From an uncultured Clostridia bacterium (lineage in GTDB: Bacteria > Bacillota > Clostridia > Oscillospirales > Acutalibacteraceae), in NCBI GenBank assembly GCA_944376655.1, contig CALWDJ010000005.1, positions 1-64,000 of the forward strand: a stretch of DNA of 64,000 bases. Reading direction: 5' to 3'. The position numbers and the translations under genes were made by a program. Of this stretch, positions 59,854-63,003 are shown piece after piece. The notes beneath the pieces are model-generated. The model had not been told where the DNA came from. It saw only the letters and a program-made list of their open reading frames with translations, and did no database searches. How positions within the stretch are numbered: the stretch's first letter is position 1; every line of letters begins with the position of its first letter.

Positions 59854-59882
59854 TTGACAAAATCTTTTTGCGGTGATATTAT
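59854..59882 (+). promoter_or_regulatory. promoter of the T-box/trpXYZ operon
   Basis: Consensus TTGACA (59854-59859), a 17-nt spacer and TATTAT (59877-59882). Transcription would begin near 59889. Confidence 0.88.
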
Positions 59883-59888
59883 ATCATC

Positions 59889-60158
59889 ATTAAGTTTAAA
59901 CCTGCGATTAAGAATAGTAGCTTTGCTTAAAACCTTTAGAGAGCGGCTGACGGTGGAAATGCTGCGGCAGAGGGCAATGTGAATGGACTTATGAGGGCGG
60001 CCGAAAGCCTTTTGGCAAGTAGCAGCTGACGGGGACCGTGCCCGTTATCAGGACGGACTGCATTTTATGTGCAGAAAACGAGCGGCCGTTTTACGGCAAC
60101 TTGGGTGGTACCGCAGGATTACAAGTCTTGTCCCATATTTTGGGATAAGACTTTTTTT
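59889..60158 (+). promoter_or_regulatory. T-box riboswitch with UGG (tryptophan) specifier
   Basis: Stem I carries the AG-bulge sequence AGAGAG (59938-59943), an apical-type GGTGGAA, and the specifier context GAA-TGG-ACTTATGAG with the specifier TGG at 59984-59986. The antiterminator T-box reads TTGGGTGGTACCGC (60101-60114) with bulge TGGT at 60106-60109. A terminator (60123-60135 with 60141-60153) then a T run follows. Uncharged tRNA-Trp should bind the specifier and the bulge and block termination, turning on trpXYZ when tryptophan is short. Downstream gene identity agrees. Confidence 0.93.
60123..60158 (+). terminator. T-box terminator hairpin
   Basis: AAGTCTTGTCCCA (60123-60135) pairs with TGGGATAAGACTT (60141-60153), with one G-U pair, around TATTT and is followed by TTTTT. 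It competes with the antiterminator at 60101-60114. Confidence 0.9.
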
Positions 60159-60160
60159 AT

Positions 60161-60228
60161 TTTTTAAAAGGATTGATTTTATGATACTTTTAACCAAACG
60201 ATGGCGCGGGTGAATTTCCTTTTAAAAA
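60161..60228 (+). promoter_or_regulatory. inverted repeat enclosing a leader reading frame; possible translational switch
   Basis: TTTTTAAAAGGA (60161-60172) and TCCTTTTAAAAA (60217-60228) are perfect 12-bp inverted arms with a 44-nt loop. The 5' arm contains the ribosome site of the 10-codon frame at 60181. The UCCUU of the 3' arm is also complementary to AAGGA of the trpX ribosome site (60244-60248). Two exclusive pairings are therefore possible. Seen in sequence; the regulatory effect is inferred. Confidence 0.55.
60181..60213 (+). CDS. putative 10-residue leader peptide with a Trp codon
   Basis: ATG at 60181 opens MILLTKRWRG then TGA at 60211-60213. AAAAGGA (60166-60172) lies 8 nt upstream, a good ribosome site. 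The Trp codon is at 60202-60204. The frame lies between the Trp T-box terminator and trpX, inside the loop of a 12-bp inverted repeat. It resembles in position the Trp-codon leader peptide that follows the T-box in the Bacillus subtilis anti-TRAP (rtpA) operon. With one Trp codon only, chance occurrence is possible. An overlapping 14-codon frame from ATG 60201 has no ribosome site. Confidence 0.45.
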   Translation: MILLTKRWRG

Positions 60229-60258
60229 CAAAAAAACATTATTAAGGAGAAATCACCT

Positions 60259-61224
60259 ATGAAAAACTTTAAAAAATTACTTGCTTTTGTTCTTACTCTT
60301 ACAATGATTGCGGCGTTTGCCGGCTGCGGCTCGGGAGACTCCGGTAAAAAGACGATAGGAATTATACAATTTGGTTCGCACGCCTCCCTTAACAACTGTT
60401 ATGACGGCATTATGAAAGGACTTGAGGAAAACGGCATAACCGAAGAAGAATACAATATCGAGTATGTAAACAGCAATTTTGACGCAAGCGTTTCCCAGAC
60501 GCAGGCGAACAATTTTGTGAACAAAAACGCGGCAGTAATAATCGCGATATCCACTCCATCAGCGGTTGCGGCGGCAAACGCGGCTGAGGAAAACGGCGTG
60601 CCGGTAGTTTACTGCGCGGTTACGGACGCTACGGTTATGGAAAATTACGGCAATGTTACAGGCTCGTCGGATATTCCGAATTTTGAAAAGCAGCTTGAGG
60701 TCGTTACCGCATTTATGAACAAAACCGACCTTAAAATAGGCGTGCTTTACTCGACTGAAGAATCAAGCTCGCCCGTACAGGTCGAAAGTCTTAAAAAGGC
60801 TGCTGAAAAGTATGACGGAATGGAAATATACGATTCCGCCGTTGCCGATATAAACACTATCGACGCGAAGACCAACGAGCTGATTGAAAGAGGCGTCGAC
60901 TGCTTTGTCAATCTGCTTGACAACACGGTTGTAGGAAAGCTCGAAACCAATATTCTCCCGATAACAAACGAAAAGAAAATTCCGGTTTTCGGATCTGAAA
61001 TAGAGCAGGTAAAGGTAGGCTGCGCGGCGAGCGCGTCTATTGATTATATTGATGTCGGTTCTGCCGCGGGAAAGGCGGCGGCGGAAATAATCGGCGGAAA
61101 GAGCGCTTCGGATATTGAGGTCGCCTATATAACCGACCCGACCAACTATTATAACAGTGAGGTCTGCGCGGCGCTGGATCTCACGGTGCCGGACAGTGTC
61201 ACCGCGGAAGATGTTGCGGAATAA
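60259..61224 (+). CDS. trpX: tryptophan ABC transporter substrate-binding lipoprotein
   Basis: A 321-residue lipoprotein. The signal peptide ends in the lipobox AFAGCG with lipidated Cys at about 23. The mature part has the ABC_sub_bind fold (PF04392-like): IGIIQFGSHASLNNCYDGIMKGLEENG and later IAISTPSAVAAANAAEENGVPVVYCAVTD. Members under Trp T-box control have been named TrpX. AAGGAG lies 9 nt before the ATG. The upstream T-box with a UGG specifier supports tryptophan as ligand. Confidence 0.88.
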   Translation: MKNFKKLLAFVLTLTMIAAFAGCGSGDSGKKTIGIIQFGSHASLNNCYDGIMKGLEENGITEEEYNIEYVNSNFDASVSQTQANNFVNKNAAVIIAISTPSAVAAANAAEENGVPVVYCAVTDATVMENYGNVTGSSDIPNFEKQLEVVTAFMNKTDLKIGVLYSTEESSSPVQVESLKKAAEKYDGMEIYDSAVADINTIDAKTNELIERGVDCFVNLLDNTVVGKLETNILPITNEKKIPVFGSEIEQVKVGCAASASIDYIDVGSAAGKAAAEIIGGKSASDIEVAYITDPTNYYNSEVCAALDLTVPDSVTAEDVAE

Positions 61225-61285: not shown

Positions 61286-62236
61286 ATGCTTTTCTTTGCC
61301 ACTACTATTGACGGTCTTCAGATGGGACTTTGCTTTGCGGTTCTCGCGCTCGGAGTGTATATTTCATATTCGATACTTGATTTTCCGGATCTTTCGGTGG
61401 ACGGTACGTTTCCGCTCGGCGGCGTTGTCTGCACCATTTTAATGTTAAGGCTCGGAATACCGGCGCTTCCCGCTATTCTTCTGAGCTTTTTCGCGGGTCT
61501 TGCGGCGGGCGCTGTTACGGGCGTACTGCACGTTAAGTTCGGCATATCAAAGCTGCTTTCAGGAATAATCGTTATGACGGCGCTTTTATCCGTAACACTT
61601 GCGCTTACAAAGCTGCTTACCAAAACGGGGCTGACCACAACTATTTTTTCTTTCAGAAGCGAAAATCTTGAGGGCCTTTTCAGCGGAGGCGCTTCACGTC
61701 TTCTTGGAGACTCCAACCGAGACTATATGATACTTATAATTGAGCTTATATTTGTTATAGCGGTAAAGCTGATAATAGACCTGTTTTTAAAAACCAAACT
61801 CGGTTATATGGTCAGGGCGACAGGCAATAACGAAATGCTTGTTGTGTCTTTAGGCCGTGACAGCGGAACATATAAAATACTCGGCATAGCGCTTGCGAAC
61901 GGCTTTGTGGCAATGTCGGGCGCGCTTTATTCAAATCTTTATTCACAGTACGACAATTCGTCGGGAAGCGGCAAGGTGGTAATGGCGCTGGCATCGGTTA
62001 TAATAGGTATCGCCGTTTTCTCAAAAATAAAGTTTATGGGCAACACCACAGCCGTAATACTCGGAGCGGTTATTTATTCGCTATGCCTTAACTACCTTGT
62101 ACTTGTTGATACAAACGGCATTTATCTCAAACTGCTTAACGCCGTTCTCTTCGCGATTATCCTTATATTCAACGAGAAGACTTCCGGATTTATAACCGGC
62201 CGTCAGAAAGCGAGAAGGGGGCAGGCGAAATGTTAG
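61286..62236 (+). CDS. trpY: tryptophan ABC transporter permease
   Basis: A 316-residue membrane protein with eight or more helices, of the branched-chain-type permease family (LQMGLCFAVLALGVYISYSILDFPDLSVDGTFPLGG near the start). It follows trpX by 61 nt and overlaps the ATPase gene by 7 nt, giving the standard binding protein-permease-ATPase order of TrpXYZ. Confidence 0.86.
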   Translation: MLFFATTIDGLQMGLCFAVLALGVYISYSILDFPDLSVDGTFPLGGVVCTILMLRLGIPALPAILLSFFAGLAAGAVTGVLHVKFGISKLLSGIIVMTALLSVTLALTKLLTKTGLTTTIFSFRSENLEGLFSGGASRLLGDSNRDYMILIIELIFVIAVKLIIDLFLKTKLGYMVRATGNNEMLVVSLGRDSGTYKILGIALANGFVAMSGALYSNLYSQYDNSSGSGKVVMALASVIIGIAVFSKIKFMGNTTAVILGAVIYSLCLNYLVLVDTNGIYLKLLNAVLFAIILIFNEKTSGFITGRQKARRGQAKC

Positions 62237-63003
62237 AGCTGCGCGGAATTTCCAAAATATACAATCCGGGCACGGTCACTGAGCTTTGCCTGTTTGATGA
62301 TTTCAGCTTTAAGGTCGCGGACGGTGAGTGCGTTTCGGTTGTCGGGAGCAACGGAAGCGGAAAGACATCGATGCTCAATATTATATGCGGCAGCATACCG
62401 GTAAGCGGCGGAGAAGTACTGATAGACGGGAAGAATATAAACTCCCTGCGAGAATATAAGCGCTACCGAATGATAGGCAGGGTTTATCAGAATCCGGCGG
62501 CTGGTACCTGTCCTGATATGACGATACTTGAAAATATGTCGCTCGCGGATAATAAGGGCAAGCGCTACGGACTTTCGTTCGGGGTGAACAATTCTAGAAA
62601 AAATTATTATAAGGAACAGCTTTCAAGCTTAGGTTTAGGCCTTGAGGATAAGCTGGATGCAAAGCTCGGCGCGCTTTCGGGCGGTCAGCGGCAGGCGGTG
62701 TCGCTGCTTATGGCGACCCTTACGCCTATTGATTTCCTGATATTAGATGAGCATACCGCGGCGCTTGACCCCCGCACCGCCGAGATAATAATGGAGCTTA
62801 CGGATAAAATCGTAAAGGAAAAGAAGCTTACAGCGATAATGGTGACGCACAATCTCCGCTACGCTGTGGAGTACGGCACACGCCTTGTTATGATGGACAA
62901 AGGAAATATAATTCTCGATAAATCTGGAAAAGAGAAACAGGACGTAAAGGTTGAGGATATTCTTGATATCTTTAATAAAATAAGCATCGAATGCGGTAAC
63001 TGA
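62230..63003 (+). CDS. trpZ: tryptophan ABC transporter ATP-binding protein
   Basis: The 257-residue ATPase has Walker A GSNGSGKTS (about 38-46), signature LSGGQRQAVSLLMATL, Walker B LILDEHTAALD and the switch His in VTHNLRYAVEYG. The Walker B Glu is followed by His rather than the usual Pro/Ala. It overlaps trpY by 7 nt. The transcript ends at the terminator 63381, after reading through repeat copy D. Confidence 0.88.
   Translation: MLELRGISKIYNPGTVTELCLFDDFSFKVADGECVSVVGSNGSGKTSMLNIICGSIPVSGGEVLIDGKNINSLREYKRYRMIGRVYQNPAAGTCPDMTILENMSLADNKGKRYGLSFGVNNSRKNYYKEQLSSLGLGLEDKLDAKLGALSGGQRQAVSLLMATLTPIDFLILDEHTAALDPRTAEIIMELTDKIVKEKKLTAIMVTHNLRYAVEYGTRLVMMDKGNIILDKSGKEKQDVKVEDILDIFNKISIECGN

What the first reader, a model, noticed from the sequence alone, without database searches (positions are those of the whole stretch)
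60161..60258. A second, translational layer of tryptophan control between the T-box and trpX
Seen: after the T-box terminator there is a 10-codon frame (60181-60213) with a good ribosome site and a Trp codon at position 8. It lies inside the loop of a perfect 12-bp inverted repeat (60161-60172 with 60217-60228). The 5' arm contains the leader ribosome site. The 3' arm has UCCUU, which can also pair with the trpX ribosome site AAGGA (60244-60248). Known: in Bacillus subtilis the rtpA (anti-TRAP) operon combines a Trp T-box with a Trp-codon leader peptide. Inferred: ribosome position on the leader selects between sequestering its own ribosome site and sequestering that of trpX, so both charged tRNA level and translation are read. 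I do not know this for trpXYZ leaders.
Basis: partly seen in the sequence, partly recalled or inferred. Interest (0 to 1): 0.8.

Follow-up and report, generated by a model that had tools for sequence, protein, structure and literature searches.

The report
Trp leader peptide behind Trp T-boxes
Directly behind tryptophan-sensing RNA switches, many Clostridia carry a tiny reading frame with a lone tryptophan codon in a nearly invariant sequence setting, just before genes for tryptophan synthesis or, as predicted, tryptophan uptake; it likely gives these genes a second tryptophan check, made during translation.

Summary
The window has a Trp T-box (UGG specifier), its terminator, then a 10-codon frame (MILLTKRWRG, 60181-60213) before trpX. 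The same frame, core R-W-R, recurs behind Trp T-boxes in about 21 family labels of Clostridia, mostly before trpB or trpX-like genes. It also shows in samples not chosen by the motif: 16 of 21 close trpX relatives, 7 of 7 T-box trpX loci of a second sample, 15 of 30 trpB loci. The codon before UGG is CGA in 98 of 99 collected leaders (14 of 15 to 16 of 16 in unselected samples), although CGA is 2.6% of Arg codons in the genes behind; after UGG come a pyrimidine and a purine in 99 of 99. A different hairpin (60208-60221 with 60244-60258) is predicted to hide the trpX ribosome site; it is strong only in part of the near clade and absent from trpB leaders as a group. Best reading: a second, translational sensor of Trp-tRNA, like the B. 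subtilis anti-TRAP leader in logic, not in architecture. Stalling and its effect are untested.

The parts
59854..59882 (+). promoter-like site TTGACA-17-TATTAT
   Evidence: consensus scan only, 11 of 12 matches
59895..60138 (+). Trp T-box riboswitch; specifier UGG at 59984-59986
   Evidence: RF00230, 97.5 bits over the 93-bit cut-off; specifier read by eye from the sequence
60123..60157 (+). intrinsic terminator of the T-box with T-run
   Evidence: 13-bp stem and T tail
60168..60172 (+). ribosome site of the leader frame (AAGGA)
   Evidence: sequence; most relatives have an SD-like site at the same place
60181..60213 (+). leader frame MILLTKRWRG
   Evidence: conserved in frame behind Trp T-boxes
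60199..60206 (+). CGA-UGG-CG box: CGA 60199-60201, Trp codon 60202-60204, then C-G
   Evidence: CGA 98 of 99 and pyrimidine-purine after UGG 99 of 99 collected leaders (most found with a CGATGG pattern); CGA is 19 of 728 Arg codons in the genes behind
60161..60172 (+).
   Evidence: perfect here, 19 of 3000 shuffles reach 12 bp; broken in L041
60217..60228 (+).
   Evidence: as above
60208..60221 (+). 5' arm of the predicted hairpin that hides the trpX ribosome site; contains the leader stop codon
   Evidence: minimum-energy and centroid fold; shuffles of this arm that pair as well: 0 of 400, 1 of 400
60244..60258 (+). 3' arm of that hairpin; contains the trpX ribosome site AAGGAG 60244-60249
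   Evidence: predicted accessibility 0.04 against a mean of 0.50 in 40 shuffles, none as low
60259..61224 (+). trpX, ABC transporter substrate-binding protein
   Evidence: PF04392, E 7.4e-47; NCBIfam TrpX model NF041285 is its only hit, E 8e-51, but 173 bits against a cut-off of 390
61286..62236 (+). trpY, permease
   Evidence: PF02653, E 6.6e-23
62230..63003 (+). trpZ, ATPase
   Evidence: PF00005, E 2e-25

Best explanation
The window carries a 10-codon leader frame with a lone Trp codon in a conserved CGA-UGG-(pyrimidine-purine) setting between a Trp T-box terminator and trpX, and it is predicted to work as a second, translational sensor of charged tRNA-Trp. Shown: the frame, its Trp codon, the CGA before it and the YR after it are conserved across Clostridia behind Trp T-boxes, before trpB and trpX-like genes alike. 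Inferred: when tRNA-Trp is uncharged the T-box lets transcription through, and a ribosome on the leader then waits at UGG with CGA in the P site. The rare CGA before it and the pyrimidine after it would make this single Trp codon slow to read and so a sharp sensor. Inferred for this clade only: the waiting ribosome covers the outer part of the 60208-60221 arm, so the trpX ribosome site is partly freed; when Trp-tRNA is plentiful the ribosome leaves and the hairpin closes. For the trpB leaders, which lack such a hairpin as a group, the downstream step is open; protection of the mRNA by the parked ribosome is my guess.
For: Conservation not selected by the motif: 16 of 21 evaluable close trpX relatives (L041-L063 less L046 and L062); 7 of 7 T-box-bearing trpX loci among 11 looked at of the 30 loci (L018's T-box is by eye); 15 of 30 trpB loci. 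Motif searches: 66 of 86 fetched order loci pass (L161 then dropped as lying inside a gene), and 10 further leaders in nine other family labels of the class, 10 of 10 before TrpB or TrpB-like genes. A UGG in specifier-like context lies upstream in 76 of 76 leaders (73 by pattern within 260 nt, 3 by eye). Where CGATGG lies between a T-box terminator and the gene it is in frame with an ATG in 69 of 70 Trp T-box loci by my reading (exception L126). Upstream codons change while the peptide type stays: M-(F/I/K)-(L/I)-L-(T/S/A)-(K/R)-R-W-R. Arg after UGG is CGN in 65 of 65 and AGR in 0, while Arg in the codon before CGA is AGA or AGG in 14 of 18. CGA is the rarest Arg codon, 19 of 728, in the genes behind. 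UGG-to-gene distance is tighter than stop-to-gene distance: best 33-nt window holds 63 against 49 of 73. The window's trpX site accessibility rises from 0.04 to 0.43 with a ribosome placed at UGG. The window's genome has a second Trp T-box (89.3 bits, below the cut-off) with the same leader type.
Against: No experiment. Leaders as a group are no more structured than shuffles (mean z -0.04 over 70 leaders; gene site accessibility 0.50 against 0.49). The hairpin's arm covariation is borderline in the near clade (266 of 5000) and in the listed trpX leaders (311 of 5000), and missing in trpB leaders (1700 of 2000). A ribosome at the stop codon would free the window's trpX site as well (0.61), so the direction of control is uncertain; in L041 it would not (0.10). 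About 10 of 24 T-box-like trpB loci in the unselected sample lack the frame, as do 5 of 21 close trpX relatives and the Lachnospiraceae and Peptoniphilus trpX loci printed, so it is dispensable. A single Trp codon is a weak sensor by the standards of known leaders (recalled). Related leaders were not down-weighted in any count.
Confidence: 0.68

Rival explanations
1. Ribosome-arresting nascent peptide: the (K/R)RWR chain itself stalls the ribosome, perhaps with free tryptophan as ligand, as TnaC does, and codon identity is secondary.
For: Hydrophobic-then-basic peptide pattern with changing codons; Arg on both sides of Trp in 65 of 76; TnaC shows that a leader peptide can sense free Trp (PMC8429421, search listing and start of abstract only).
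Against: Leaders as short as MKRWQNI (L017), MVLRWRVRL (L125) and MGLIRWRLD... (L163) put little chain before Trp; CGA and CGN are fixed where other Arg codons would give the same peptide.
Confidence: 0.15
2. One reading: the 12-bp repeat hides the leader's own ribosome site or, alternatively, its 3' arm hides the trpX site, set by ribosome position.
For: Repeat rarer than chance (19 of 3000); the two pairings share bases and exclude each other (sequence).
Against: Arms broken in L041 and no other scanned leader reaches 12 bp; leader-site pairing is the weaker one (-12.1 against -14.7); no family-wide signal for leader-site pairing (1551 of 2000).
Confidence: 0.1
3. RNA-level element: UGG-YR pairs with the 3' end UGCCA of tRNA-Trp, as the T-box bulge does, and the frame is secondary.
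For: Pyrimidine-purine after UGG in 99 of 99; the window genome's tRNA-Trp ends ...CCCCTGCCA, so UGCCA would pair with UGGYR with wobble allowed.
Against: The box is in frame with an ATG in 69 of 70 Trp T-box loci by my reading; the idea does not explain CGA; CGN and CAR codons give YR anyway.
Confidence: 0.06

Closest known systems
B. subtilis rtpA (anti-TRAP) leader: Trp T-box plus translated Trp-codon leader (Chen and Yanofsky 2003, 2004, not held; known here from recall and from passages of PMC11255114)
   Same: Trp T-box followed by a short translated leader with Trp coding, so that uncharged tRNA-Trp is read in transcription and again in translation
   Different: One Trp codon in a fixed CGA-UGG-YR box instead of several Trp codons (recalled); stop codon median 41 nt from the gene start, so a terminating ribosome would usually not cover the gene's ribosome site as recalled for rtpA; genes are trpX and trpB
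Streptococcus suis trpXYZ T-box (PMC9382623, passages)
   Same: Trp T-box with UGG specifier before trpXYZ
   Different: The terms 'leader peptide', 'open reading frame' and 'Trp codon' do not occur in its main text
Classical trp attenuator leader (E. coli trpL, recalled)
   Same: Short leader with Trp codon followed by Arg
   Different: In the window no terminator-like site lies between leader and gene; the transcription decision lies upstream in the T-box
TnaC free-Trp arrest peptide (search listing and start of abstract only)
   Same: Leader peptide with Trp acting in Trp metabolism
   Different: No resemblance beyond K/R-W seen by eye; peptides here can be 7 residues long

Membership tests
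rtpA-type tandem T-box and Trp leader peptide | Trp-specific T-box upstream | tested here: met
   RF00230 with UGG specifier; UGG in specifier-like context upstream of 76 of 76 leaders, 73 by pattern and 3 by eye
rtpA-type tandem T-box and Trp leader peptide | Ribosome-site-led short frame with Trp coding between terminator and gene | tested here: met
rtpA-type tandem T-box and Trp leader peptide | Leader stop codon next to the gene's ribosome site, so that a terminating ribosome blocks it (recalled) | tested here: not met
   45 nt between stop and gene start here; median 41, IQR 30-52 over 73 leaders
rtpA-type tandem T-box and Trp leader peptide | Ribosome stalls at Trp codons on Trp shortage and downstream translation rises | not testable with these tools
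   needs toeprinting or reporters
T-box riboswitch (RF00230) | Covariance-model match over the curated cut-off | tested here: met
   97.5 bits against 93 for the window; most relatives were called by core motif, and of four leader-bearing relatives scanned L192 and L222 pass, L018 and L286 do not
Any Rfam family in the leader region itself | Match over the gathering score in 60130-60320 | tested here: not met
   best is pemK, 21.9 bits against 34.8
TnaC-type arrest peptide | Long nascent chain in the exit tunnel needed for arrest (recalled) | tested here: not met
   leaders of 7-10 residues with Trp at codon 4-6 exist
TrpX tryptophan-binding protein (NF041285) | NCBIfam model over its cut-off | tested here: not met
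   only hit, E 8e-51, but 173 bits against 390; so trpX here is a name by likeness and T-box, and its substrate is a prediction

The most novel reading that the evidence does not exclude
CGA-UGG-YR is a tuned control codon: evolution has placed a lone Trp codon in a fixed slow setting (rarest Arg codon before, pyrimidine after) so that one codon alone senses Trp-tRNA, and this box forms a general second, translational layer behind Trp T-boxes across Clostridia, independent of any fixed RNA hairpin. Doubling the Trp codon may relax the need for CGA (L286: CGT UGG UGG CGC).
Probability: 0.4. Interest if true: 0.78.

Novelty: new variant of a known kind. Interest (0 to 1): 0.66.

Why it matters
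Tandem reading of one tRNA, in transcription and then in translation, was known to me from a single leader, rtpA of B. subtilis. Here the same layout recurs in about 21 family labels of Clostridia, before trpB and before trpX-like transporters, with a codon-level signature that can be scanned for in genomes. If the box is a tuned stall site, it gives a direct test of how codon neighbours (CGA in the P site, a pyrimidine 3' of the A-site codon) set the sensitivity of a ribosome to one aminoacyl-tRNA.

Tried and rejected
12-bp repeat as a conserved switch: rejected, broken in L041. Family-wide hairpin over the gene's ribosome site: rejected as a general feature (in one search the arm pairs better than shuffles at p 0.05 or less in 9 of 66 leaders, 3 of 35 trpB and 6 of 31 others). 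Pairing of the CGAUGGCG box with a complement in cis: leaders that hold a 6-mer complement number 0, 0 and 0 upstream (about 2.7 expected each) and 0, 0 and 2 downstream (about 1 expected each). Internal AUG of CG-AUG-G as a coupled second start: its frame stops within 15 nt of the gene start in 21 of 74, scattered otherwise. Known Rfam family in the leader: none over the cut-off. Other Arg codons at the CGA place: the pattern NGNTGGCG over the same 394 genomes gave no other Arg-Trp leader among the 14 extra loci that I read, only Gly-Trp types (L192, L193, L222); the trpB sample later gave one CGT (L286).

Rows left out and limits of counts. The reversed-pattern control also rings in many genomes, so 109 of 394 is no evidence by itself; only loci that passed one search are. 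In one search the place rows that did not look like a T-box to me were not fetched; of 86 fetched loci 20 failed, four of them leaders by eye with a weak or absent ribosome site (L115, L138, L142, L178). In the in-frame count, loci where CGATGG is inside or at the start of the gene behind were left out (L106, L127, L161, L166, L179), as were non-T-box hits and three T-boxes without a UGG specifier by eye (L155, L156, L190), which carry CGATGG in no such frame. L018 and L296 are leaders that the tally script failed to parse and are not in the 99; L101 (MKKAWCWR), L192, L193 and L222 are not in it either. The CGA count in the 99 is inflated because most were found with a CGATGG pattern and 10 with CGATGGCG; samples not chosen by the motif give CGA 16 of 16, 7 of 7 and 14 of 15. 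The group trpX-and-other includes a few TrpB-like and unclear genes. In the trpB sample, one T-box locus has another Trp-containing frame without R-W (L295). One search read minus-strand loci the wrong way round; one search replaces it, except for L294, which is taken. The T-boxes of L298 and L304 are by eye and below the Rfam cut-off. Part of the printed output was cut.

Literature: 10 searches listed no paper on this leader in the open-licence library; most subscription papers, the rtpA originals among them, are not held. Passages only were seen of PMC11255114, PMC9382623, PMC11805395 and PMC2494555 (a T-box survey in which 'reading frame' and 'peptide' do not occur); all others were listings.

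Full report
What is there. The window (contig C5 of a 1.99 Mb genome bin; its nearest relatives are titled Clostridia) holds a T-box of 97.5 bits at 59895-60138 with a UGG specifier, its terminator at 60123-60153, a ribosome site AAGGA, a 10-codon frame MILLTKRWRG at 60181-60213, and then trpX, trpY and trpZ, an ABC transporter by Pfam. The NCBIfam TrpX model is the only hit of trpX but stays below its cut-off (173 against 390 bits), so tryptophan as substrate is a prediction.

Is the frame real? Close trpX relatives found by protein alone carry the same frame in the same place. In one search, 16 of 21 evaluable loci (L041-L063 without L046 and L062, which are cut) have it: MILLTKRWRISL, MKLMTKRWRRLIFL, MFLMTKRWR..., MFVLVQRW, MYTKRWQGLN, MYLLTKRWRLFNIR and so on. 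L052, L055, L059, L060 and L061 lack it, as do the Lachnospiraceae and Peptoniphilus trpX loci whose leaders were printed. A second sample gave 7 of 7 T-box-bearing trpX loci with it (L012-L018; 11 of 30 loci looked at; the other four show neither T-box nor frame in the 230 nt printed; the T-box of L018 is by eye). The smallest is MKRWQNI (L017).

How wide is it? A pattern search (T-box core, 51-111 nt, CGATGG) matched 109 of 394 genomes of the order; its reversed-pattern control also rings often, so hits were checked one by one. Of 86 loci fetched, 66 have a ribosome-site-led ATG frame with CGA-TGG (L161 then dropped). The genes behind form a cluster of 41 TrpB and TrpB-like proteins and a cluster of 19 trpX-like binding proteins; the rest are single or unclear. 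One of the first cluster's 405-residue type passes the NCBIfam trpB model (L131, 525 against 392 bits) and one of its 457-residue type the TrpB-like model (L109, 688 against 366 bits); L181 has an M20 peptidase or amidohydrolase behind. Outside the order, CGATGGCG behind a T-box core matched 17 of 291 genomes of the class (a few of them in the order itself); 15 loci outside the order were read and 10 are leaders, 10 of 10 before TrpB or TrpB-like genes. By my reading of the tables this makes about 21 family labels. An unselected trpB sample (30 best loci) has it in 15; 10 have a T-box-like leader without it; 5 lack a T-box or could not be judged.

What is conserved? In 76 leaders Trp is at codon 8 in 45. 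Upstream codons vary while the residue types stay (hydrophobic, Leu, Thr/Ser/Ala, Lys/Arg, Arg, Trp, Arg). CGATGG between terminator and gene is in frame with an ATG in 69 of 70 Trp T-box loci by my reading. The box CGA-UGG is constrained beyond amino-acid choice: CGA is 16 of 16, 7 of 7 and 14 of 15 in the three samples not chosen by the motif, against 19 of 728 Arg codons in the genes behind. After UGG, Arg is CGN in 65 of 65 and never AGR, while Arg in the codon before CGA is AGA or AGG in 14 of 18. Over 99 collected leaders the two bases after UGG are pyrimidine-purine in each (many were found with patterns that fix part of the box, and relatives were not down-weighted). The UGG-to-gene distance is tight (median 65, IQR 60-74, 62 of 73 within 50-82) and tighter than the stop-to-gene distance, as if the place of a ribosome at UGG, not at the stop, matters.

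What about the hairpins? Among the leaders scanned, the 12-bp repeat is in the window only; 19 of 3000 shuffles reach it and L041 breaks it. The minimum-energy fold instead pairs 60208-60221 with 60244-60258 and buries the trpX ribosome site (z -2.01, 4 of 200 shuffles fold as well). Such pairing is strong in L041, L043, L045 and L015, with different sequences in both arms except in L041, and weak in L042, L044, L014, L016 and L017. Swapping arms among leaders gives 51 of 2000 (trpX and others), 1700 of 2000 (trpB) and 361 of 2000 (all), and 266 of 5000 for the near clade and 311 of 5000 for 26 listed trpX leaders. So the hairpin is probably real in part of this clade but not a family trait. 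With a ribosome placed at UGG the window's trpX site opens from 0.04 to 0.43, at the stop codon to 0.61; the footprints were set by me.

How it likely works. Shown: conserved frame, Trp codon, box and spacing behind Trp T-boxes before Trp genes. Inferred: uncharged tRNA-Trp first opens the T-box; then the ribosome on the leader waits at UGG. The genome has a tRNA-Arg with anticodon ACG, which by general knowledge reads CGA through inosine, a poor pairing. A CGA-CGA pair in the Salmonella his leader gives a slow-translation reading (PMC11805395, passages). That a pyrimidine 3' of a codon lowers its reading is recalled, not looked up. The parked ribosome would free the trpX site in this clade; for trpB leaders the last step is unknown.

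Known or new. The rtpA leader of B. [quoted passage not shown] The geometry differs, so I do not file this as a member. Ten paper searches listed no report of this leader, but the library lacks most subscription papers.

Noticed in passing
L008 (G000:C21:226-477, minus strand) and L278 (G000:C37 start): The window's own genome has a second Trp T-box (89.3 bits, below the cut-off) followed by a leader of the same type (MTKRWRISELLIF from the inner ATG, CGA-TGG-CGT), but the contig ends soon after; trpB sits at the start of another contig. Both ends share GCATTAAAATA and then differ, and the trpB end shows an inverted repeat by eye, as if a mobile element lay between leader and trpB.
   Followed up: partly
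L045, L015 and L144: Trp-Arg is repeated, giving RWRWR; in L045 and L015 the box itself is doubled as CGATGGCGATGGCG.
   Followed up: no
L192, L193, L222: A second leader type behind Trp T-boxes, MADGWR or MADGWWR, with Gly in place of the first Arg; L192 and L193 start with TTG.
   Followed up: no
L181: A leader of this type (MIPAKQFYRRWRIHRNSV) stands before an M20 peptidase or amidohydrolase instead of trpB or trpX, which may point to Trp salvage.
   Followed up: partly
L285: MLLTKRWRS leader before trpB on a short contig end with no T-box visible upstream.
   Followed up: no
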